DNA of 21,364 nucleotides from a virus. Below the pieces are notes generated by a model. That model made no database searches and was not told the DNA's origin. It was given only the letters and a program-made list of their open reading frames with translations. Below, one piece after another: positions 6,654 to 19,497 of the stretch (position 1 is the first letter of the stretch; each line of letters begins with the position of its first letter). Location of the stretch: the IMG/VR virus record IMGVR_UViG_3300042527_000274, positions 1 through 21,364 of that record; one strand, 5' to 3'. The position numbers and the translations under genes are program-made.

Positions 6654-6672
6654 ATTATAAAATTATTTAGCG
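6654..6672 (-). promoter_or_regulatory. Possible late promoter ahead of the GT4 gene
   Basis: The minus strand carries GCTAAATA (6665-6672), overlapping the last codons of the fibre gene, about 29 bases before the GT4 ATG. A separate TATAAT (6654-6659) follows. The nearest -35-like TTGACG is 21 bases from it, too far for a good host promoter. GCTAAATA is one base off the late consensus. It could equally be the coding sequence for the Ala-Lys-stop end of the fibre, so confidence is low. Confidence 0.3.
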
Positions 6673-9600
6673 TCCTTCATCGTCAACGTTCCCCAATACG
6701 TTGTACCACCATCGTAAGTGATAAACGTCCACAAGTCACGAGCATTTGCTGCTGTTGTTGCAGGAGGAATTGCACCACCAGCCCAATAAATTGTATTGGA
6801 GAATGATGGATTTCTTCCACCAGTTGCATCTTGCAATAACAAGAGCGAGAACATCTGACCAGTGCCTGATGATGGTGCATTAGTGAACGTGAACGCAACG
6901 TTTGCAGTCAACACATGGCGGAAATAATTCGAATCTGCAAGATTGACAGTGTTTGCGCCATCAGTATTTGTATTTGCAACAATAAAGTCTTTTACTGCCT
7001 TGAGCGTTGCACCCTCATTTGGTCCAGTTGGTCCTTGTGGACCCTGTGGTCCTTGCGGACCTTGAGGACCAGCAACACCCTGTGGACCCTGTGGTCCTTG
7101 TGGACCCTGTGGACCAGCATCACCCTTATCACCAGTGCGAACAAATGTCATAATCACATTGGTGCTATTTGGGAAGTTTGATCCAGTTAATGTTGAATTC
7201 AATCCTGCAACTGGAACAACAAACCAATCATTGACATGGAGATGAGAACCATTAATATTGAAGAATGTATACTCAAGAGTATTTGCAGCATTTGCAATTT
7301 TAAATGTGCCCTTGATTGTCGATGTTGAGTCATCAATTGTGTTTAGATAATTGAACACATTTGCATTCAAGCGATCAATGTAATCAATGTACATCTCAGT
7401 TGCAGATAGCAATGTTGTGTTATTGAATTTAACAAAGCCAGCTGTTGGATCAGTGTTTGCTGTATTGGTGTTGAACACATATTCAAACGTTGCACCACCA
7501 AATTCACCAGTGTCACCCTTAACACCTTGTGGTCCTTGTGGACCTTGTGGACCTTGTGGACCAACGACACCTTGTGGACCCTGAGGACCTTGTGGTCCTT
7601 GTGGACCTTGTGGACCTTGTGGACCAGCGCCACCAGTTGAACCAATTGAACCTTGTGGACCCTGTGGTCCTTGCGGACCTTGAGGACCGACTGGACCAAC
7701 ATCACTGATGTTGATTGTTCCAGCCATTGATGAATGATATTGACACACATAATACAATGTGCTTGGCGCATTATAAGGAACAGCGAATGTTATTGTTCCG
7801 ACAGCAGCACCACCATTCGTTATACCAGAGCTGTATATACTTCCAGAGGAATAAGCACCAGAAACTGTTTGAATCCAGAAAGGATGACCAGAAGCATTTA
7901 CACTAAATTGATAAGTAAATCCACGCAGTAAATTTAATGTTGGATTGCTAGAACCATCGATTGAATATGCACCAGCACCAACATTCGTAACTGTGTATGT
8001 TCTTGCACCTGCAGGTCCTTGTGGACCTTGAGGACCTTGCGGACCTGCAACGTTTGATGCGGCACCTTGTGGACCGCTTGGTCCTTGAGGACCTTGAGGA
8101 CCAGGAACAGTTGAAGCGTCGCCTTGTGGACCCTGTGGACCTTGCGGACCAGCATTACCAGTTAGACCTTGAATACCTTGTGCGCCTTGTGGACCTTGAG
8201 GTCCTTGAGGTCCAGTTACTGAATTTCCTTGCGGACCTTGAGGACCCTGAGGACCGACAGTTCCTTGTGGACCTTGAGGACCCTGTGGACCTTGTGAACC
8301 AGCGTCGCCAGTAAGACCTTGGACGCCTTGTGGACCTTGCGGACCTTGTGGACCTGCATTACCTTGTGCGCCTTGCGGACCTTGTGGACCAGGAACAGTT
8401 GAAGCGTCGCCCTGAGGACCCTGTGGTCCTTGTGGTCCTTGTGGACCTTGTGGTCCAGTATCACCAGTAAGACCTTGAATACCTTGTGTGCCTTGTGGAC
8501 CTTGAGGACCAGCAACACCCTGTGGACCTTGAGGACCAGCAACAGTTGAATCTGCGCCAGTTGGTCCTTGTGGACCCTGTGGTCCTTGTGGACCAACAAC
8601 ACCTTGCGGACCTTGTGGACCAGTATTGCCAGCTGGACCCTGTGGACCTTGCGGACCAGTGTCACCTTGATCGCCCTGCGGACCCTGAGGACCAGTATTG
8701 CCAGTTGCACCTTGTGGACCCTGTGGTCCTTGTGGACCTTGTGGACCTTGTGGACCAGCATTACCAGTTAAACCCTGTGAGCCCTGCGTTCCAGTCGGAC
8801 CTTGTGGACCTTGTGGACCAACGACACCTTGTGGACCTTGTGGTCCTTGCGGTCCTTGTGGACCCTGTGGACCGACAATTGGACCAGCATCAATCCAAGA
8901 AGATGATCCTGCATTCCAAACATATAAATGATTGTCAGCGATTACAATATATGCATCGCCGTCAGAGGCACCGCCAGGAAGATTACCAACAGTTGCAACA
9001 GTTCCTAGAATAGAAAGACCTGCGCCAGCTGCACCAGTTGGTCCTTGTGGTCCTTGTGGTCCTTGTGGACCAGCAGCGCCTTGCGGACCTTGCGGACCAT
9101 GAGTTCCTTGTGGACCCTGTGGACCTTGTGGTCCTTGAGGACCTTGTGGTCCAGTATCACCATTATTACCCTGTGCACCGATTAATCCTTGTGGACCTTG
9201 AGGACCTTGCGGACCCTGTGGACCCGCGACACCTTGAGGACCTTGTGGACCCTGAGGACCAACAACACCCTGCGGACCTTGTGGACCAGTCTCACCAGTA
9301 TCACCTTTTGGTCCTTGTGGACCTATTGAACCTTGTGGACCCTGAGGACCTTGCGGACCACCAAGACCTTGATCACCCATAACACCTTGTGGACCTTGTG
9401 GACCAACAACACCTTGTGGACCTTGTGGACCTGTCGCACCAGATGGACCTTGAGGACCAGTGACTCCTTGAGGACCCTGAGGACCAACAACACCTTGTGG
9501 ACCTTGTGGACCTGTCGCACCAGATGGACCTTGAGGACCAGTGACTCCTTGAGGACCCTGAGGACCAGTTACACCTTGTGGACCTTGTGGACCAGTTACG

Positions 9601-10139
9601 CCTTGTGGACCCTGTGGTCCAGTGGAGCCAGTAGCACCTTGTGGTCCTTGTGGACCAGTAGAACCTGTCGTACCTTGCGGACCTTGCGGACCAGGAACGT
9701 TTGAAACACCAGATGGACCTTGTGGTCCTTGTGGACCAGTTACGCCTTGTGGACCCTGAGGACCAGTTACGCCTTGTGGACCCTGTGGTCCAGTGGAGCC
9801 AGTAGCACCTTGTGGACCTTGAGGACCAGCAACATTTGACGCAGCACCTTGTGGACCTTGTGGACCTGTTGATCCTTGTGGTCCTTGTGGACCAGTTACG
9901 CCTTGCGGACCTTGTGGACCAGTATTACCAGTTGGACCTTGTGGACCAGGAACGTTTGAGACACCAGATGGACCTTGCGGACCTTGCGGACCCTGTGGAC
10001 CTGTAGAACCAGAAGGACCTTGCGGACCCTGTGGACCAGATGCACCTTGTGGACCTTGTGGACCTATCGCGCCATTTGGACCTTGTGGACCCTGAGGACC
10101 TTGAGGTCCAGAAGCGTATGTGACTCCAATTGTCGTCAT
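6663..10139 (-). CDS. Collagen-like tail fibre with embedded cupredoxin-like domain
   Basis: Probable receptor-contacting fibre, 1158 aa. A short N-terminus, [10 protein letters not shown], is followed by Gly-Pro-Gln-dominated collagen triplets (residues 11-370). Next is a small module, [20 protein letters not shown] to SWIDAGPI (about 377-421), and a second collagen tract (423-711). A beta domain (about 712-812) has type-1 copper ligands: H752 in SGHPFW, and C799, H802 and M805 in [10 protein letters not shown]. Short collagen linkers (814-880, 1003-1040) flank a further beta domain (881-1002). The C-terminal domain (1044-1158, KAVKDF... to TMKDAK) is shared with the 517-aa fibre. Collagen triplets imply a trimer. 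Its ATG overlaps the TGA of the 111-aa gene (ATGA), so the two are coupled. Adhesin role is inferred from architecture. Confidence 0.9.
7704..8006 (-). other. Cupredoxin-like domain inside the collagen-like fibre
   Basis: About 100 residues (roughly 712-812 of the fibre) from [16 protein letters not shown] through [20 protein letters not shown] and [20 protein letters not shown] to AGTINI. The order His, then Cys-x2-His-x2-Met near the C-terminal end matches the ligand order of small blue copper proteins such as plastocyanin. All four candidate ligands (H752, C799, H802, M805) are present. C799 is the domain's only cysteine, so a disulfide is not an alternative. Copper binding is inferred, not shown. 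Confidence 0.75.
8007..8873 (-). repeat. Second collagen-like Gly-X-Y tract of the fibre
   Basis: Residues 423-711 are unbroken Gly-X-Y triplets, mostly Gly-Pro-Gln, with recurring longer units such as [28 protein letters not shown] and [11 protein letters not shown]. Synonymous codons differ between copies, so most repeats are old or have been kept apart by drift. Two short linker tracts of the same type lie at 7500-7700 and 7020-7133. Confidence 0.92.
9030..10109 (-). repeat. First collagen-like Gly-X-Y tract of the fibre
   Basis: Residues 11-370 are Gly-X-Y triplets. Pro sits almost always in the X position and Gln in Y, with occasional GVT, GST, GAT, GVV, GPS and GDT triplets. Charged residues are rare (examples: K278, D280 and E283 in GPKGDTGE). 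The tract holds an exact 81-base tandem duplication and another near-identical 56-base pair of segments 171 bases apart. Confidence 0.93.
9400..9561 (-). repeat. Exact 81-bp tandem duplication in the fibre gene
   Basis: Positions 9400-9480 and 9481-9561 are identical base for base, encoding 27 residues (nine triplets) twice, each with [20 protein letters not shown] in register. Identity runs six bases further on the right. The neighbouring triplets use varied synonymous codons, so this is a recent in-frame expansion. Confidence 0.9.
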
Positions 10140-12002: not shown

Positions 12003-12737
12003 TTAACTCTTTTTAACGATCTTATATTTTTTACGAATCATATAATATTTTCTGTAGAAATTAGATTCATGAAACCATTTAAGTAATTTGCTGTAGTGTA
12101 CTTGTTCTTTTGATGCTGGTCCATAACTCGCCACAATGTCTTTATTGGTTATAAATGGAATTACATGCAGTAAAGGGTCACCAGCTTTAATTTCTACTTC
12201 ACATTCACGTTTTGGTGAACAAATGAAATTGATAGTTGTGAATCTATTATAATCCACTACTCCTGGATAAATGTATAAATCATCTAAAAATTTTGAATGG
12301 TAGAATGCTGGCATTACTAACGCTGACACATTTCCGTTACCATGAACTTTCCATGCACCTGGAAAGTTCCAAACACATGAATCAACTCCATTCAGTTCAA
12401 ATAAGCCATCAGTGATATCGTCAGCCATTCTTTGAGGTTGACCTAGTGGCGTTTGTCGCTTTTTTCCATCTTCGCCGCTACTTCCTGCAAACGCAACGCA
12501 ACCAGCCTTGTTTGCTTTAATATGAAAATTGCTCCATGCTGGAATGATATAACCCATTCTAGCATAGTCATGCATTCCAGGGCATTTAGGAAAACAATAG
12601 TCCCCAAACTTCTTTTCTTGATGTTCTTTTAAAGGTTTTAAATCTTTTGCAAGAATTGGTGGGTAATGCGGATAAACAACTTCTGAAGCGTCTGCAAACT
12701 CAAGATCTGGTTTATCTTTTTTAAATAGATTAAACAT
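12003..12737 (-). CDS. Uncharacterised protein, distant DUF6065-like relative of its neighbour
   Basis: The 244 residues show no catalytic motif I can name. GDYCFPKCPGMHDYARMGYI (45-64) then IPAWSNFHIKAN parallels the block 'KKCLPLLDGMSLGFTIP...DVHIRTN' of the next gene upstream. EVEIKAGDPLLHVIPFITN also parallels 'HIPAGTPLVTVIPIKRN' there, so the two are probably divergent paralogues. The C-terminus is basic (KKYKIVKKS). DUF6065-type proteins are seen among phage and bacterial sugar or oxygenase clusters and are of unknown function. Only two bases separate it from the stop of the upstream gene, so it belongs to the same transcript started at the consensus promoter near 14100. Confidence 0.55.
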   Translation of the reverse strand: MFNLFKKDKPDLEFADASEVVYPHYPPILAKDLKPLKEHQEKKFGDYCFPKCPGMHDYARMGYIIPAWSNFHIKANKAGCVAFAGSSGEDGKKRQTPLGQPQRMADDITDGLFELNGVDSCVWNFPGAWKVHGNGNVSALVMPAFYHSKFLDDLYIYPGVVDYNRFTTINFICSPKRECEVEIKAGDPLLHVIPFITNKDIVASYGPASKEQVHYSKLLKWFHESNFYRKYYMIRKKYKIVKKS

Positions 12738-12739
12738 GA

Positions 12740-13474
12740 TTATTTCTTCTCTCTCAATTCATAGGTATAATGATGCGTACGCATGTTTTGTCGTTTTTGT
12801 ATTACAGAAATTTCTTTGAATTCTTTTGTTGACATTGATCGAACGCGAGGTTTCTTTTCAAAAGAATTTCTCTTAATTGGAATCACTGTAACTAATGGTG
12901 TTCCTGCAGGAATGTGATAATCAGCATCAGTTTCATGCCACAGAGCAGGAAAGTTAACTTCCTTTGGATATTTGTCTGTGTCTACCATTGCACCCAAACA
13001 TGTGAATGGGTGTTCATAATTGTTCATTGGATTGATAAACAGCGAAGACCAGCCTGGAGCAGTCTTAACAACCCAGTGATTGAGAAACTTTAAAGGATTA
13101 CCGTGATTTAATTTTATTGCGCTATTTCCGCCAACTTGATTCGCGTCATGATGCTCGCAAACTCTAAGACCAGGTGGATTTGTTATCTCAAACTGACTAT
13201 TGTTGTGATTAGTTCTAATATGCACATCACCGCATAAGGGAATTGTGAACCCTAATGACATCCCGTCTAATAGTGGAAGACATTTTTTAGCAGACATGGT
13301 TTTGTTGCCAAAAGAATCTCGACCTTCACCATACGAAGGTTCTAGATTCTTAAACCAATCAGGCAGATTCTTTACTGCTGCTTTTGGTTCAGGAATGATA
13401 CCATAAAGTTCTGGGTGGCAATAAAACTCAATTATTGGATTGTCCCAGAATTTGAGTTTTTGAAATTTTACCAT
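12740..13474 (-). CDS. DUF6065-like protein of unknown function
   Basis: The 244 residues from MVKFQKLKFW carry features I associate with DUF6065: an N-terminal PEPKAAVKNLPDWFKNLEP, then SAKKCLPLLDGMSLGFTIPL and DVHIRTN, KFLNHWVVKTAPGWSSLFIN and PHNNYEHPF-type Pro/Asn segments, GAMVDTDKYPKEVNFPA, and C-terminal AGTPLVTVIPIKRNSFEKK. Several Trp and His residues are conserved-looking, but no catalytic set is certain. The ATG at 13474 overlaps the oxygenase stop (ATGGTAA). An in-frame ATG at 13498 would add eight residues and a longer overlap. It is coupled behind the hydroxylase and may act on the same substrate; that is inference. Confidence 0.65.
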   Translation of the reverse strand: MVKFQKLKFWDNPIIEFYCHPELYGIIPEPKAAVKNLPDWFKNLEPSYGEGRDSFGNKTMSAKKCLPLLDGMSLGFTIPLCGDVHIRTNHNNSQFEITNPPGLRVCEHHDANQVGGNSAIKLNHGNPLKFLNHWVVKTAPGWSSLFINPMNNYEHPFTCLGAMVDTDKYPKEVNFPALWHETDADYHIPAGTPLVTVIPIKRNSFEKKPRVRSMSTKEFKEISVIQKRQNMRTHHYTYELREKK

Positions 13475-14070
13475 GTGTTTTTGCCCATGATCCAACATAC
13501 TAACGATTTACGAACACCAGCAGTAACTGGACGTACACGATGAGGCATGCGAGAATCAAAGAAAATAACATCACCAACTTCTGGTTTTGCAACAAAAGGT
13601 TCATCGACACGACCATTCATCACACACTCAAATTCACCACCCTCATACTTACTTGGATCTGTGAGAACTAATGACGCGCTAATCTTGCGTTCAAATGGGC
13701 TTGATAGATTTCCAGCATCGATATGCCAGTCGTAATGCTGCTTGTCTTTAGATTTGTAAACAGTATATTGAAAGTTCTCAAAACCATCAACATCGTACAT
13801 AAAATGGTCGTAATTGACGGCAGAAACAAGACTTGAAAACTTTTGGTATAGCCAATCAGAATTTGGCTCGTGCATCACCCACATGACATCGCTGTCGCGG
13901 TTTTTCTTGCTGACTTGCCCCTTTCCTGCACCACCACCGACTGCACCTTTTTGAAACTTTTGCAAGTCTTCAAGGGCAACAATTTTTTCTATTTCTTCTT
14001 TGGTGAATGCTTTTGTGGCGACACAAAAACGATTTAAAACACGAGCATAACGTTGCACTGGATATGGCAT
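13468..14070 (-). CDS. 2OG-Fe(II) oxygenase, prolyl 4-hydroxylase-like
   Basis: Non-haem iron, 2-oxoglutarate-dependent hydroxylase of the type common in T4-like cyanophages. In 200 residues the iron ligands are H116 and D118 in YDWHIDAG and H177 in MPHRV, and R187 in AGVRKSL lies ten residues after the distal His, where 2OG is bound. LTDPSKYEGGEFE (137-149) and GDVIFFDSRMPHRVRPVTAG are standard prolyl-hydroxylase fold blocks. KNRDSDVMWV near residue 60 is the usual phage N-terminal part. It has GAGG about 8 bases before the ATG and lies about 20 bases downstream of a consensus host-type promoter. Substrate unknown; a protein prolyl target such as the collagen-like fibre is possible. Confidence 0.9.
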   Translation of the reverse strand: MPYPVQRYARVLNRFCVATKAFTKEEIEKIVALEDLQKFQKGAVGGGAGKGQVSKKNRDSDVMWVMHEPNSDWLYQKFSSLVSAVNYDHFMYDVDGFENFQYTVYKSKDKQHYDWHIDAGNLSSPFERKISASLVLTDPSKYEGGEFECVMNGRVDEPFVAKPEVGDVIFFDSRMPHRVRPVTAGVRKSLVCWIMGKNTW

Positions 14071-14133: not shown

Positions 14134-16140
14134 TTATTCCAACTTGATTGTGATTTGACCACCTGGAGGAACAGGCACAGCAAGAGTATCAGTTGGGAAT
14201 GTATCGTAAGGGACCACTGTTTCTGATATCGTTGGAGCAACTGTAGAAATTGCACCACCTGGGAAGTATACGCCAAGAATTGTTTGAGCCTGACCGACAT
14301 TTCCTGGAGTATATGCGGTAATTGGTCGACCAGTTTCTGGTTGATTAGCGATTGGATATACAACATTATAATTCGTGTTATAATTGGTTGAATATGCCGT
14401 TGCTGGTCTTGATGCCTCTGGTTGATTTGCTATTGGATAAGCAATATTGTAATTGGTGTTATAAAGAATCGTGAAGGCTGTTGCTGGCTGGTTAGCAATT
14501 GGCTGATTGGCGATTGGGTAAGCAACATTGTAATTCGTATTGTAGAGAATAGAGTACGCTGTTGCTGGCTGATTGGCGACTGGATACACAGTATTATAAT
14601 TAGTGTTATAAAGAATTGTATATGCAGTCGCTGGTTGATTTGCAATTGGCTGATTGGCGACTGGATACACTGTGTTATAATTGGTTGAATATGCAGTTAT
14701 AGGACGAGATGCTTCAGGTTGATTTGCTACTGGATATGCGACGTTATAGTTGGTAGAATACGCAGTGATTGGTCTAGATGCTTCTGGTTGCGATGCGATT
14801 GGGTATGCAACGTTATAGTTCGTATTGTAAAGAATTGTATACGCTGTAATTGGTCGACCAGTTTCTGGTTGATTGGCAACAGGGTAAACTGTGTTATAAT
14901 TGGTATTATAAAGAATCGTATATGCTGTTGCTGGCTGATTAGCAATTGGATATGCAACGTTGTAGTTTGTTGAATATGTTACGGAATAGGCTGTTGCTGG
15001 CTGATTTGCGACAGGATATGCTACGTTATAGTTAGTATTATAGTTTGCATTATTTCCAGTGCCAGTACAGCTGAAGTTGATTTGATAATACTGCTCAAAT
15101 TCTGGATAAAAGTTGTAATCTATGTTGAATGTTGTGAATGGAGATGGGCATCCAGCATTGCTTCCAGAATAATTTGTTTGATATGCAGCTCCACCAAGAC
15201 TATCAAAATAATACTCCTGAGAGTTCCAATTGAAATTTGATGGTGGATTGTAATTCGCCAATGGCTGATTTGCAACAGGATATGCAACGTTATAATTCGT
15301 ACTGTATGCTGTAATTGGTCGACCAGTTTCTGGTTGATTGGCAACTGGATACACTGTGTTATAATTGGTTGAATATGCAGTTACAGGTCTTGATGCTTCA
15401 GGTCTATTTGCTACTGGATAAGCGACGTTGTAGTTTGTTGAATATGTGATAGAATATGCTGTTGCTGGTCTAGACGCTTCTGGTTGATTTGCAACTGGAT
15501 ATGCAACATTATAATTTGTGTTATACAAAATGCTATAAGCAGTTGCTGGTTGATTTGCAACTGGATAAGCAACATTATAATTTGTGTTATAAAGAATACT
15601 ATAAGAAGTTGCTGGTTGGTTAGCAATCGGGTAAGCGACGTTATAATTTGTGTTATAGTTTGTAGAATATGCTGTCGCTGGTCTTGAAGCCTCTGGCTGA
15701 TTAGCAACAGGATACGCGACATTATAGTTCGTAGAGTATGCAGTTACAGGACGAGATGCTTCAGGTTGATTTGCTACTGGATAAACAACATTGTAATTAG
15801 TGTTGTAGTTGGTGCTATAGGCAGTGGCTGGACGCGATGCTTCTGGTTGATTGGCAACAGGGTAAACTGTGTTATAATTGGTATTATAAAGAATCGTATA
15901 TGCTGTCGCAGGTTGATTCGCGATCGGCTGATTAGCGATCGGATAGGCAATATTATAGTTGGTTGCATAAGTGATCGTGTATGCAGCTGCAACTGGATCG
16001 TTACCTGTTCCAGCACGACCAGAAATAGTCCCCTTAAACTGTCCGTATGGAATCGCCAGATTTCCAGGAGAATTGAAAATGGTTGTGGCTCGTGCAGCAC
16101 CACCGATCCAAGTTTTTCTTAAATTTAATGCCTTTGTCAT
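14134..16140 (-). CDS. Asn/Tyr-rich tandem-repeat structural protein (668 aa)
   Basis: No named family; probably a fibre-like virion protein. Conserved N-terminal cap: LRKTWIGGAARATTIFNSPG (7-26) to GTISGRAGTGN. Then two blocks of tandem repeats (52-296 and 366-609) of the form A-[YF]-...-TNYN-x-x-YP-[VI]-A-[NS]-[QR]-P, with the variable tail EASRP, ETGRP or IANQP. The blocks flank a non-repeated island (297-365) with two cysteines, C331 and C358. The C-terminal cap (610-668) has TILGVYFPGGAISTVAP and ends VPPGGQITIKLE. Both caps and the island are shared with the 584-aa neighbour. There are no charged clusters and no signal peptide. The ribosome site GTGAG and a CTAAATA box lie upstream. Placement beside the fibres suggests a tail or virion component; function unknown. 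Confidence 0.75.
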   Translation of the reverse strand: MTKALNLRKTWIGGAARATTIFNSPGNLAIPYGQFKGTISGRAGTGNDPVAAAYTITYATNYNIAYPIANQPIANQPATAYTILYNTNYNTVYPVANQPEASRPATAYSTNYNTNYNVVYPVANQPEASRPVTAYSTNYNVAYPVANQPEASRPATAYSTNYNTNYNVAYPIANQPATSYSILYNTNYNVAYPVANQPATAYSILYNTNYNVAYPVANQPEASRPATAYSITYSTNYNVAYPVANRPEASRPVTAYSTNYNTVYPVANQPETGRPITAYSTNYNVAYPVANQPLANYNPPSNFNWNSQEYYFDSLGGAAYQTNYSGSNAGCPSPFTTFNIDYNFYPEFEQYYQINFSCTGTGNNANYNTNYNVAYPVANQPATAYSVTYSTNYNVAYPIANQPATAYTILYNTNYNTVYPVANQPETGRPITAYTILYNTNYNVAYPIASQPEASRPITAYSTNYNVAYPVANQPEASRPITAYSTNYNTVYPVANQPIANQPATAYTILYNTNYNTVYPVANQPATAYSILYNTNYNVAYPIANQPIANQPATAFTILYNTNYNIAYPIANQPEASRPATAYSTNYNTNYNVVYPIANQPETGRPITAYTPGNVGQAQTILGVYFPGGAISTVAPTISETVVPYDTFPTDTLAVPVPPGGQITIKLE
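14314..15045 (-). repeat. Distal repeat block of the 668-aa protein
   Basis: Residues 366-609 hold tandem copies of the Tyr/Asn unit, for example AYTILYNTNYNTVYPVANQP, with ETGRP, EASRP and IANQP spacers. Copy length varies by in-frame steps. Copies use differing synonymous codons, so the array is partly diverged. Confidence 0.88.
15253..15987 (-). repeat. Proximal repeat block of the 668-aa protein
   Basis: Residues 52-296 consist of the same Tyr/Asn/Pro unit as the distal block, with the core TNYNVAYPVANQP repeated many times and EASRPATAYSTNYN as a common joining segment. It is separated from the distal block by the two-cysteine island. Confidence 0.88.
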
Positions 16141-16165
16141 TTTCGCTCACTACATCTGGTGTAAG

Positions 16166-16173
16166 TATTTAGC
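16166..16173 (-). promoter_or_regulatory. Possible late promoter before the 668-aa repeat gene
   Basis: On the minus strand this reads GCTAAATA, one base from the late consensus. It sits in the 43-base gap between the two repeat-protein genes, about 26 bases before the ATG at 16140. The same variant appears before the GT4 gene and a similar one before gp13, so CTAAATA may be an accepted form in this phage. Confidence 0.4.
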
Positions 16174-16183
16174 GAAAATCAGA

Positions 16184-17938
16184 TCACTCGATTTTTACAA
16201 CGATTTGTCCACCAGGAGGAACTGCCACAGGATAATTAGAGTTATCTGGATATTGCCAATATTGAACTTCAGTTTCTGAGATATATGGAGCAAGAGAAGC
16301 CACATCGCCTCCAGGGAAATATACACCCAAGACTGTCGTTGCAGGACCAGGAGCTCCAGGGATATAACTCGTCAATGGTTGATTCGCCAATGGTTGATTT
16401 GCAATCGGATATACAACGTTATAGTTTGTGTTATAATTTGTGGACCACGTTGTTATAGGCTGGTTTGCGATTGGATAGATTAAATTATAGTTCGTGTTGT
16501 AATTTGTGGAATACGCTGTTGCAGGTTGATTTGCAATAGGTCGATTTCCTTCTGGATAAATGATATTATAGTTTGTCGTCCAAGCAGTAGCAGGGCGAGA
16601 TGCTTCTGGTTGATTATCAATTGGATATGCAACATTATAGTTAGTGCTGTAAACAATTGTCCAAGCAGTTGCTGGCTGATTAGCGATCGGTCTATTAGCA
16701 ATAGGATATGCCGTGTTAAACGTTGGAATAAAGTTTGTTGTCCAAGCAGTTGCTGGTTGATTTCCTGGAAGCGCAGGTCCAGGTCCATATACAATGTTAT
16801 AGTTTGTCGTCCAAGCAGTTGCTGGTTGATTTCCAATATGGTAATTAATGTTATAATTTGTCACCCAAGCAGTTGCTGGTTGGTCTCCAATCGGATATCC
16901 AATGTTATAGTTTGTTGTCCAAGCAGTGATAGGGCGAGATGATTCAGGTTGATTTGCAATTGGATATACGACGTTATAGTTTGTATTATAATTTTCCGTA
17001 TTTCCAAAAGGAAAGCATTCGTAAGAGATATAGTCACCGCCAATATTATATGGAGTAGGACATGTCGGATCGGATCCAGAACCAATCAATGTGGCAACGC
17101 CACCATAACTTGGTCCAATACCAGTTTCATTCCAATTAAATCCTGTTGCTGGATTATAATTTCCAGTTCCAGGTTGATTGCCAACTGGATATTCAATATT
17201 GTAATTCGTATTGTAAAGAATTGTGTATGCAGTCGCTGGTTGGTTTCCAGGTCCATATACAATGTTGTAGTTAGTTGTCCAAGCAGTTGCTGGTTGGTTT
17301 CCAGGACCCTGTACAACATTGTAGTTTGTCGTCCAAGCAGTTGCTGGTTGATTACCAATAGGATAAACTGTATTAAATGTTGGAACAAAGTTTGTTGTCC
17401 AAGCAATTGCTGGTTGATTGCCAGGAAGCGCAGGACCTGATGGATATGCGATATTGTAAAATGTGACGTAGTTTGTTGTCCAGGCAACTTCAGGGCGAGC
17501 ATTTTCTGGTCTATTCGCGACTGGATACACAGTATTGTAAACGGTATTATAAAGAATTGTGTATGCTGTCGCTGGCTGATTGGCTATTGGATAGGTAATA
17601 TTGTAATTGGTATTATAATTTGTCACCCAAGCAGTTGCTGGTTGGTTAGCGATCGGTTGATTAGCGGTCGGATAAACAATATTATAGTTTGTTGTCCAAG
17701 CAGTTGCTGGACGATTTGCTATCGGTTGATTGGCAATTGGATACGCAATGTTATAATTTGTATTGTAGTTTGATGTGTATACTGGACTTGGAACATTTCC
17801 AGAACCACCACGACCAGAAACAGTTGCAACATGGCGACCATAATCAATAAAAAGATTTGATGGTGCATTAAACGTCTGCGTTCCACGCGATGGACCAACG
17901 ATCCACGATTTTTCTAATGTATCTGGTCTACGTGCCAT
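16184..17938 (-). CDS. Asn/Tyr/Trp-rich tandem-repeat structural protein (584 aa)
   Basis: Paralogue of the next gene; no named family. N-terminal cap LEKSWIVGPSRGTQTFNAPS (8-27) to SGRGGSGN matches the 668-aa cap. Repeat blocks (52-257 and 316-526) use the core TNYN-x-x-YP-x-x-NQPATAW, with Trp where the neighbour has Tyr, and some units with YGPGNQPATAW or SGPALPGNQPA. An island (258-315) begins NYNPATGFNWNETG and has C293 and C308. The C-terminal cap includes TTVLGVYFPGGDVASLAP and ends VAVPPGGQIVVKIE. It starts five bases after the fibre stop, with no clear ribosome site, and is probably co-transcribed with the 517-aa fibre. Likely a virion protein; mode of action unknown. Confidence 0.75.
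   Translation of the reverse strand: MARRPDTLEKSWIVGPSRGTQTFNAPSNLFIDYGRHVATVSGRGGSGNVPSPVYTSNYNTNYNIAYPIANQPIANRPATAWTTNYNIVYPTANQPIANQPATAWVTNYNTNYNITYPIANQPATAYTILYNTVYNTVYPVANRPENARPEVAWTTNYVTFYNIAYPSGPALPGNQPAIAWTTNFVPTFNTVYPIGNQPATAWTTNYNVVQGPGNQPATAWTTNYNIVYGPGNQPATAYTILYNTNYNIEYPVGNQPGTGNYNPATGFNWNETGIGPSYGGVATLIGSGSDPTCPTPYNIGGDYISYECFPFGNTENYNTNYNVVYPIANQPESSRPITAWTTNYNIGYPIGDQPATAWVTNYNINYHIGNQPATAWTTNYNIVYGPGPALPGNQPATAWTTNFIPTFNTAYPIANRPIANQPATAWTIVYSTNYNVAYPIDNQPEASRPATAWTTNYNIIYPEGNRPIANQPATAYSTNYNTNYNLIYPIANQPITTWSTNYNTNYNVVYPIANQPLANQPLTSYIPGAPGPATTVLGVYFPGGDVASLAPYISETEVQYWQYPDNSNYPVAVPPGGQIVVKIE
16361..16993 (-). repeat. Distal repeat block of the 584-aa protein
   Basis: Residues 316-526. 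Units such as TTNYNIGYPIGDQPATAW and TNYNVVYPIANQPLANQ recur with variable joints (ESSRP, EASRP, IANRP). Trp appears in nearly every unit at the position that is Tyr in the 668-aa paralogue. Confidence 0.85.
17168..17785 (-). repeat. Proximal repeat block of the 584-aa protein
   Basis: Residues 52-257. The same unit as the distal block, with extra variants VVQGPGNQPATAW and IVYGPGNQPATAY in which a Gly-Pro-Gly turn replaces the YPIA segment. Confidence 0.85.
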
Positions 17939-17943
17939 GAATT

Positions 17944-19497
17944 TTATCTAGCGTCTTTAACAGCGAGCGTACCGATATAAGTTGCGCCACCATCATAGGT
18001 TGTAAATGTCCACAAATCTGTGTTTCCAGTAGATGTTGTAGTTGCTGGTGGAACTTGGCCACCAGCCCAATAAACTGTATTACCCCACGAAACAGTTTTT
18101 CCACCACCAGATCCTTGAATGACAATTAGTGAGAATGTCATTGAGGTTCCAGAGGCAGGAGCATTAATGAAGTTAAATGTTGTGTTGCCAGATAAAGTAT
18201 ACCTGAACCAGTTTGAATTAGCAAGGTTTGCAGACACAGTTCCTGAAACAGTGCTTGTGTCCAAGAAATCCTTCACAGATTTCATCGTGCCTGTGATGTT
18301 TCCAGTTGTATTGATAGCACCTGTTACAGTCAAATTTGCAGCAGATAGATTTCCTGTATTCAACGCTGCTGGCAATCCATTAGCCAAGAAATTCCAAGTG
18401 TCTGTTATATCATTCCAGAACAATTCGGCATTACCAGAAACTGCAGAACGCTGAACTCTGATAGTTCCGTTACCATCTGTTGTTGCACCGAAACGAAGAA
18501 TATACTTGTCGTCAGCAGTAGTTGCAGGTGCTTGAATCGGATCAATTACAGTCAATGTTGTAATTGTTGCATTGATCAAATTAGCATTTGCAATATTTGC
18601 AAGGCTGACTACTGCTAAATTATTTGTTTGGGTTCTATTCGCAACAACTAGGTTTCCTGATGTCGTATTTTGAGTAACAGCAAGATTTCCCGTTGACGTA
18701 TTTTGGGTGACAGCAAGATTACCTGAGAAAGTATTTTGCGCAACAAAGGCATTACCTGTAAATGTATTCCATGTCACTCCGAGATTAGAATAAAGGTTTG
18801 CGTTACCAGTAACTTCTAATCGTGCACCAACATTCACATTGTAAGAAACATTTGCGCTTGCAAAGATAAACGTATTTGGTGTCACTTCAAACGTTGCAGC
18901 ACCATGAGTATTTGCTACATTGACATGATTACCGAAGAAGTAAGTGTTTGGGGAAACATTGAATCTTGCATCAGCAGTCGTGTTTGAAACTCTTACTTTC
19001 TGAGAAGAGATAGTCGTGTTTGATTCGACGTTAAATGTACCACCTGCTTGCGTGTTCGAGATCACAACATTCGATGCAGTGATCAACGTATTTGATGAGA
19101 CGTTAAATGTTCCACCAACAGTCGCATTTGAGATACTTACGTTTGTTGCGTAGATAACTGTATTTGTATTGATTTGATACAGATCAGTTGCACCCATACG
19201 ACGGTAGTGGATGTCACCAGCGTCGACGTATAGATGGTTCGTGGAGTTGTCTAACTCAACATTGAATACAGTTAGAGTTCCGTCGATATTCGTGTCGTCT
19301 GCAACGTCAAGAATAACGCCACCAGCCGTATTCGCAATTCGTAGATAACCCTCGTTGATTGTGACGTTTCCGCGAGGCTTTACGAAGTTGCCGCGAGTAA
19401 TTTCGTTCACATCATTTGCAACGAGATTATCATTAATACGCCATTGATTGAACGTATTTGCTGTGCTAATAATTGCAACGTTAATTGTATTTGCCAT
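17944..19497 (-). CDS. Repeat-built tail fibre protein (517 aa)
   Basis: Probable fibre or adhesin. The N-terminal ANTFNQWRINDNLVANDVNE (13-32) and VKPRGNVTINEGYLRIANTAGGV-type segments are common in marine phage fibres and likely mark attachment to the particle. Residues about 112-240 hold five degenerate repeats of about 23 residues (GGTFNVSSNT, GGTFNVESNT, ARFNVSPNT, ATFEVTPNT). Residues 244-300 hold 11-residue repeats of the form GNLAVTQNTST, likely a beta-stack. A small module with LRFGATTDGNGTIRV and FWNDITDTWNF (330-370) follows. The C-terminal domain (404-517), MKSVKDF to AVKDAR, is homologous to the end of the collagen-like fibre. Ribosome site GAGAAG precedes the ATG. Confidence 0.82.
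   Translation of the reverse strand: MANTINVAIISTANTFNQWRINDNLVANDVNEITRGNFVKPRGNVTINEGYLRIANTAGGVILDVADDTNIDGTLTVFNVELDNSTNHLYVDAGDIHYRRMGATDLYQINTNTVIYATNVSISNATVGGTFNVSSNTLITASNVVISNTQAGGTFNVESNTTISSQKVRVSNTTADARFNVSPNTYFFGNHVNVANTHGAATFEVTPNTFIFASANVSYNVNVGARLEVTGNANLYSNLGVTWNTFTGNAFVAQNTFSGNLAVTQNTSTGNLAVTQNTTSGNLVVANRTQTNNLAVVSLANIANANLINATITTLTVIDPIQAPATTADDKYILRFGATTDGNGTIRVQRSAVSGNAELFWNDITDTWNFLANGLPAALNTGNLSAANLTVTGAINTTGNITGTMKSVKDFLDTSTVSGTVSANLANSNWFRYTLSGNTTFNFINAPASGTSMTFSLIVIQGSGGGKTVSWGNTVYWAGGQVPPATTTSTGNTDLWTFTTYDGGATYIGTLAVKDAR

What the first reader, a model, noticed from the sequence alone, without database searches (positions are those of the whole stretch)
14134..17938. 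Two adjacent Tyr/Asn/Pro repeat proteins with shared caps and a central two-cysteine island
Both proteins have the same plan: conserved N-cap, a repeat block, a non-repeated island with two cysteines near the midpoint, a second repeat block of about equal length, and a conserved C-cap. The repeat core, TNYN-x-x-YP-x-x-NQP, fits no fold family I know. The near symmetry around the island suggests a hairpin or a hinged fibre, with the cysteines as a cross-link. This is the strongest candidate for an undescribed structural protein class in the window.
Basis: seen in the sequence. Interest (0 to 1): 0.7.

Follow-up and report, generated by a model that had tools for sequence, protein, structure and literature searches.

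The report
Phage fibre proteins with self-complementary arms
These two neighbouring virus proteins belong to an unnamed family of probable tail fibres in which the second half, read backwards, is a module-for-module complement of the first half, so the chain should zip onto itself like a DNA hairpin and carry an exchangeable tip at its bend.

Summary
Both ORFs (668 and 584 aa) have N-cap, repeat arm, island, repeat arm, C-cap. Each arm alternates 'n' runs (tetrapeptide TNYN) and 'p' runs (pentapeptide xANQP), 2-4 modules per run. Read backwards with n and p exchanged, the C arm gives exactly the N-arm run lengths: 17/17 and 19/19 blocks here; 221/223 in 13 representatives (both misses are tokenisation errors); about 46% in direct order. 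Facing modules also covary by residue (TNY with IANQ, INY/ILY/ITY with ExxR). With unrelated repeats the same rule holds: L065 31/31 letters, L075 8/8 linkers, L071 11/11. DNA complementarity does not explain it. Over 48 proteins the arm lengths correlate at r = 0.995. AlphaFold folds the two caps confidently but not the arms. The island is swapped between nearly identical arms and reused on other stems, as a receptor-binding tip would be; the cysteines are optional. The genes lie in the T4-like baseplate-to-neck region, with a 2OG-oxygenase/DUF6065 cassette. Best reading: a fibre stem made of a self-complementary antiparallel hairpin, like the T4 gp37 needle in topology but with an undescribed pairing code. 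No family, PDB or cultured-phage match. Virion location and fold are untested.

The parts
16184..17938 (-). P0002, self-complementary hairpin fibre protein, 584 aa
17789..17938 (-). P0002 N-cap (aa 1-50)
   Evidence: N-cap and C-cap both fold confidently in homologue L024
17171..17788 (-). P0002 N arm (aa 51-256): nnn.ppp.nn.ppp.nnn.pp.nnn.ppp.nnn.ppp.nnn.pp.nn.pp.nn.pp.nnn
16994..17170 (-). P0002 island (aa 257-315), Cys293 and Cys308; predicted distal tip
16364..16993 (-). P0002 C arm (aa 316-525): modular reverse complement of the N arm, 17/17 blocks
16187..16363 (-). P0002 C-cap (aa 526-584)
14134..16140 (-). P0001, paralogous self-complementary hairpin fibre protein, 668 aa, with a different code
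15991..16140 (-). P0001 N-cap (aa 1-50)
15262..15990 (-). P0001 N arm (aa 51-293)
15046..15261 (-). P0001 island (aa 294-365), Cys331 and Cys358; four-stranded in the AF2 model at moderate confidence
14311..15045 (-). P0001 C arm (aa 366-610): modular reverse complement, 19/19 blocks
14137..14310 (-). P0001 C-cap (aa 611-668)
13468..14070 (-). 2OG-Fe(II) oxygenase, next to the hairpin gene in essentially all loci (possible maturation enzyme)
12740..13498 (-). DUF6065 protein a, conserved partner gene
12003..12737 (-). DUF6065-like protein b (PHROG 7084), conserved partner gene

Best explanation
These are tail-fibre or adhesin proteins of T4-like phages built as one long self-complementary hairpin. 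The N-cap and C-cap fold together into one base domain. The N arm runs out, the island forms the distal tip, and the C arm runs back antiparallel against an N arm. Each 'n' module (aromatic/Asn: TNYN, TINY, TILY, TITY) faces a 'p' module (small/Pro: xANQP, EASRP). The aperiodic order of n and p runs works as a key: it fixes one register, sets fibre length, and keeps the two co-encoded paralogues from pairing with each other. The island is swapped by recombination to change what the tip binds. Shown by tools: the reverse-complement code, residue covariation between facing modules, arm-length symmetry, confident prediction of both caps, island swapping, conserved gene cassette. Inferred: the caps packing as one domain, chains running along the fibre axis (about 60-70 nm if one module is about 13.5 A), oligomeric state, location in the virion, receptor binding by the island, modification by the 2OG/DUF6065 enzymes.
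For: Mirror code 221/223 blocks in 13 representatives, against 98/212 in direct order, 108/212 mirrored without exchange, 42-63% in shifted registers, shuffles 130.7 +/- 6.7 with maximum 158 of 20,000 (the two misses are one mis-tokenised stretch, YPIANQPISGYPIAGY). Residue covariation phi 0.90 vs 0.45 +/- 0.04 when facing blocks are shuffled within protein and length class; a polar S residue never faces E (0 of 114); position pairs run antiparallel, S3xP9 z 23, S2xP7 z 16, S6xP2 z 8. Same rule with other repeat chemistries: L065 31/31 letters, 0 of 1e6 shuffles; L075 8/8 linkers and 7/7 TAAV-VSGES; L071 11/11, L072 9/12. Arm lengths r = 0.995 over 48 proteins. Paralogue pairs: own 410/410, cross 178/386. 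Both caps at pLDDT 82-95 in L024. Island swaps. Position between baseplate and gp13; in S-PM2 that stretch is annotated as virion structural and tail-fibre proteins.
Against: AlphaFold2 does not fold the arms, so the pairing geometry is unseen. L110 has 19 vs 16 repeats by my count, and the L082 group has near-equal unit counts but no clear facing code with my tokens. No proteomics or structure exists for any member, and no cultured phage was found to carry one. A domain-swapped intermolecular pairing fits the code equally well.
Confidence: 0.8

Rival explanations
1. The arms are zigzag layers (n out, p back), stacked like the glycine-rich hairpin lattices of S16 gp38 or Pam3 gp24, with the two arms face to face; block length is the width of a layer.
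For: Also gives equal lengths of facing blocks; caps show weak structural similarity to glycine-rich phage proteins; cultured phage tips use such lattices (PMC9608196).
Against: With flush edges the running sum of n minus p modules should stay bounded; it wanders as in shuffles (28 vs 28.3). Same-arm neighbours show little association. Only 4-7% Gly.
Confidence: 0.2
2. The complementarity acts between molecules: N arm of one chain pairs with C arm of a neighbour in a domain-swapped dimer or trimer.
For: The code is equally satisfied; many phage fibres are intertwined trimers (general knowledge; Pam3 gp24).
Confidence: 0.3
3. The mirror pattern is a nucleic-acid feature (DNA inverted repeat or mRNA hairpin) with no structural meaning in the protein.
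For: An inverted repeat would give mirrored order.
Against: No long inverted repeats; N vs reverse-complemented C DNA scores equal synonymous-codon shuffles (16.0/18.5/13.0 vs 14.2/18.4/13.5); paired blocks differ in codon number (4 vs 5).
Confidence: 0.01
4. It is not a virion fibre but a secreted or decoy protein, or a capsid decoration, made late in infection.
For: No virion proteomics; no cultured relative.
Against: Operon position between baseplate/fibre and neck genes in T4-like loci, swappable tip, adjacent fibre genes.
Confidence: 0.15

Closest known systems
T4 long tail fibre gp37 tip (collar D10 + needle D11; PMC6957217)
   Same: Chain goes out and back; base domain D10 made of both ends (residues 811-881 and 1010-1026), elongated D11 needle (882-1009), receptor-binding tip in the middle of the sequence.
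   Different: gp37 needle is short and holds seven irons by His; here almost no His (0 and 2), 200-240 residues of repeats per arm, and a module-by-module reverse-complement code; no sequence match.
S16 gp38 / Pam3 gp24 glycine-rich tips (PMC9608196)
   Same: A beta domain whose loops extend into hairpins with hypervariable distal ends; family caps show weak Foldseek similarity to glycine-rich phage proteins.
   Different: Low Gly here, one very long hairpin instead of several short loops, complementary n/p modules; cap relationship not confirmed.
Collagen-like and pentapeptide-repeat proteins
   Same: Short-period repeats; a collagen-like fibre is encoded in the same operon.
   Different: No Pfam hit to either in these proteins; two different repeat types that face each other in mirrored order.

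Membership tests
T4 gp37-type needle | HxH motifs coordinating iron along the needle | tested here: not met
   P0001 has 0 His, P0002 has 2
T4 gp37-type needle | Out-and-back chain with tip at mid-sequence and base formed by both ends | tested here: inconclusive
   Strongly supported by sequence and AF2 but arms have no model
T4 gp37-type needle | Collar (D10) fold and homotrimer | tested here: inconclusive
   No sequence match and no significant fold match; oligomer not testable
Glycine-rich phage adhesin (gp38/gp24 type) | Glycine-rich motifs making a hairpin lattice | tested here: not met
   Gly 4% and 7%; no Pfam hit
Glycine-rich phage adhesin (gp38/gp24 type) | TNF-like / glycine-rich-domain beta base | tested here: inconclusive
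   Weak BFVD rows, E 0.5 or more for named glycine-rich proteins; hhalign probability 1%
Collagen triple helix | Gly-X-Y repeats, Pfam PF01391 | tested here: not met
   Not in P0001/P0002; strong only in the 6663-10139 protein
Any named Pfam/NCBIfam/PHROG family | Credible hit above curated cut-off | tested here: not met
   (phrog_6733 at 4e-4 is a 24-residue repeat match only; Phage-MuB_C in six relatives judged a repeat artefact)

The most novel reading that the evidence does not exclude
A new class of protein architecture: a natural polypeptide whose two halves are module-wise reverse complements, with at least three unrelated repeat chemistries using the same pairing logic. A sequence-programmed protein hairpin with a readable n/p alphabet, used as a fibre stem of encoded length, with orthogonal codes for paralogues and a plug-in tip.
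Probability: 0.75. Interest if true: 0.93.

Novelty: categorically new. Interest (0 to 1): 0.88.

Why it matters
If the pairing is physical, this is a protein counterpart of nucleic-acid hairpins: fibre length, register and partner specificity would be readable from a simple two-letter module code. That makes the fold directly testable and could give programmable protein rods. It also names a probable host-recognition system, with swappable tips, carried by uncultured T4-like and other phages, and gives the DUF6065/2OG cassette a candidate substrate.

Tried and rejected
BLAST of the proteins and caps against cultured phages: nothing relevant; genome-contig scans: no relatives. Pfam Phage-MuB_C at 1e-10 in six members: regarded as a repeat artefact, not followed. 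Foldseek on the P0001 model: noise. Foldseek and VIA-align on the L024 model: no significant fold; lambda and Bxb1 tail-tip chains at Z 4.2-4.3 only. Cys as a cross-link: rejected as a general feature because Cys-free islands exist. DNA or RNA origin of the mirror: rejected. Zigzag with flush edges: not supported. psbA as a host marker in eight related contigs: absent, host unknown. DUF6065 neighbourhoods in haloviruses and cyanophages: no hairpin gene recognised in the annotation next to it. Papers on reverse-complementary or palindromic proteins: none found.
Full report
1. What is there. The window is a 21,364-base uncultured virus record from a T4-like phage whose gp15 is closest to cyanomyoviruses (35-40% identity). 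On the minus strand the gene order is: end of a baseplate-type protein (phrog_358), phrog_473, a 517-aa fibre, P0002, P0001, a 2OG-Fe(II) oxygenase, two DUF6065-type proteins, a glycosyltransferase, a collagen-like fibre, more glycosyltransferase-like genes, then gp13-gp14-gp15-gp16-gp17. They have no Pfam, NCBIfam, PDB or cultured-phage relative.

2. The code. Two anchors recur: an aromatic after [QR]Pxxx (A) and the Tyr of YP (B). A to B is the S block, 8 or 12 residues (16 in L026), that is 2, 3 or 4 tetrapeptides of TNYN type (n). B to A is the P block, 10 or 15 (20) residues, that is 2, 3 or 4 pentapeptides of xANQP type (p). Counted from the caps, block k of the N arm and block k of the C arm have the same module number, and an S block always faces a P block. 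P0002: 17/17, P0001: 19/19; 13 representatives: 221/223. The two misses come from one mis-tokenised stretch in L014 (YPIANQPISGYPIAGY is a 15-residue P block). Controls: direct order 98/212, mirror without S/P exchange 108/212, shifts of 1-4 blocks 42-63%, within-arm shuffles 130.7 +/- 6.7 of 223, maximum 158 in 20,000. One gene suffices for significance: 22 and 28 of 100,000 shuffles reach the observed value for the two window proteins. The relatives are not independent lineages, but their codes differ, so changes in one arm have been matched in the other (for example P0002, L009 and L010 share the proximal ten blocks and diverge together in both arms towards the island).

3. Facing modules also covary in residue type. 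In 264 facing pairs a hydrophobic second residue of S (INY, ILY, ITY) goes with a last pentapeptide that starts with Glu (136 of 150); a polar one (TNY) never does (0 of 114) and faces mostly IANQP. Phi is 0.90 against 0.45 +/- 0.04 (maximum 0.59) when P blocks are shuffled within protein and length class; same-arm neighbours show little. The strongest column pairs are S3xP9 (N with A/N/T, L with S, T with G; z 23), S2xP7 (z 16) and, further along, S6xP2 and S7xP4, which is an antiparallel register inside the block. Irregular pairs match too: GPALPGNQP faces TNFxPTFN twice in P0002.

4. Generality. A C-cap profile scan brought in proteins with the same caps and quite different arms. L065 uses SYNTxPA and SYPYxPA heptads; writing n for Y-N and p for Y-P, its C arm reverse-complemented equals its N arm in 31 of 31 letters (forward 14, reversed without exchange 0, 0 of 1e6 shuffles). 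L075: linker lengths 13,13,8,13,13,13,8,8 mirrored 8/8, TAAV faces VSGES 7/7. L071: YTPE/D faces YTPA and FxPA faces FxPA, 11/11; the rule, read from L071, gives 9/12 on L072. L098-L101 have 7 and 7 units, with aromatic units facing Gly/Ala units by my reading, and L104 has 13 and 13; L110 (19 vs 16) is an exception (counted by eye). The L082 group has 40/38, 34/34, 37/38, 41/39, 38/38 and 42/43 units, but I could not read its letters. Over 48 proteins of all chemistries N-arm and C-arm lengths correlate at r = 0.995 with a median difference under 2% (null median |log2 ratio| 1.30, observed 0.02).

5. Not nucleic acid. There are no long inverted repeats, and the complementarity of N-arm and C-arm DNA equals that of synonymous-codon shuffles. 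Selection is on the protein.

6. Structure. AF2 of P0001 leaves the arms at pLDDT 21-28 but gives most of the caps and island at 56-82. AF2 of the 279-aa homologue L024 gives N-cap residues about 20-50 and C-cap residues about 220-279 at 82-95, which suggests one domain formed by both ends; coordinates were not inspected directly. No significant fold match was found; weak viral rows include glycine-rich phage proteins and an S-PM2 virion structural protein, not confirmed by profile comparison. A zigzag arrangement with flush edges predicts a bounded running sum of n minus p modules; it wanders as in shuffles (28 vs 28.3), so I favour arms that run along the fibre axis.

7. Tip. Near-identical stems carry unrelated islands: L009_11787/L018 (caps 1.00, arms 0.96, island 0.27), L013/L021 (0.97, 0.93, 0.21), L017/L019 (1.00, 0.92, 0.31). 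Conversely similar islands sit on stems of different chemistry: P0002/L071 52%, L009_11787/L094 60%, L075/L096 53%, L009_10001/L097 62%. This is the pattern expected of a receptor-binding tip. Several islands lack Cys, so a disulphide cannot be the general principle.

8. Two paralogues, two keys. In ten loci with two complete paralogues the own arms agree in 410/410 blocks, cross combinations in 178/386 (the L014 pair was not used). Aperiodic, different codes would prevent slippage and mispairing; this is inference.

9. Cassette. A 2OG oxygenase gene directly follows the hairpin gene in the T4-like relatives and in the other contexts examined except L112, where the oxygenase-DUF6065 cassette is just upstream. 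DUF6065 relatives in cyanophages Syn9 and P-TIM40 lie beside tryptophan halogenases. A role in modifying the arms is a reasonable guess only.

10. Comparison. The topology matches the T4 gp37 tip (base from both ends, needle, mid-sequence tip; PMC6957217), but the iron-binding His motif is not met and there is no sequence relation. It works like a gp37 needle; it is not shown to be one. S16 gp38 / Pam3 gp24 share the idea of hairpins with variable tips (PMC9608196) but are glycine lattices. I found no description of proteins whose halves are modular reverse complements, within an open-access library only.

11. Limits. No experimental structure, no proteomics, no cultured host. Relatives come from IMG/VR contigs, some redundant; statistics on representatives still contain shared ancestry. 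Module tokenisation was mine; controls used the same tokens. The letter rules for L065, L075 and L071 were noticed by eye and then scored by script.

Noticed in passing
window 12003-14070: 2OG-Fe(II) oxygenase plus two DUF6065-type proteins travel with the hairpin genes in essentially every locus, also outside T4-like contexts; DUF6065 is otherwise common in haloarchaeal tailed viruses (HF1/HF2, HRTV) and sits beside tryptophan halogenases in cyanophages Syn9 and P-TIM40.
   Followed up: partly
window 6663-10139: 1158-aa collagen-like (GPQGPQ) fibre with several inserted non-collagen domains; its C-terminal domain resembles that of the 517-aa fibre at 17944-19497.
   Followed up: no
L087:4609-6180: Family member with Cys-rich arms (22 Cys in the central region) instead of n/p modules, same caps.
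   Followed up: no
L104, L110 vs L098-L101: N arm made only of GGNYASTNP-type units and C arm only of PGNxNYNPYV-type units in L104/L110; the opposite order in L098-L101. Unit counts 13/13 and 7/7, but 19/16 in L110.
   Followed up: partly
L082, L084, L094, L096: A second shorter family member (461-538 aa) with its own 2OG oxygenase and glycosyltransferase lies upstream of the long one.
   Followed up: no
window 17944-19497: 517-aa fibre with an 11-aa (33-bp) repeat around 18653-18745 (NTxxGNLAVTQ).
   Followed up: no
window 14320-14335, 14848-14863, 15313-15328: Three copies of a 16-nt near-palindrome AATTGGTCGACCAGTT inside the P0001 gene, apparently just a shared repeat-coding stretch.
   Followed up: no
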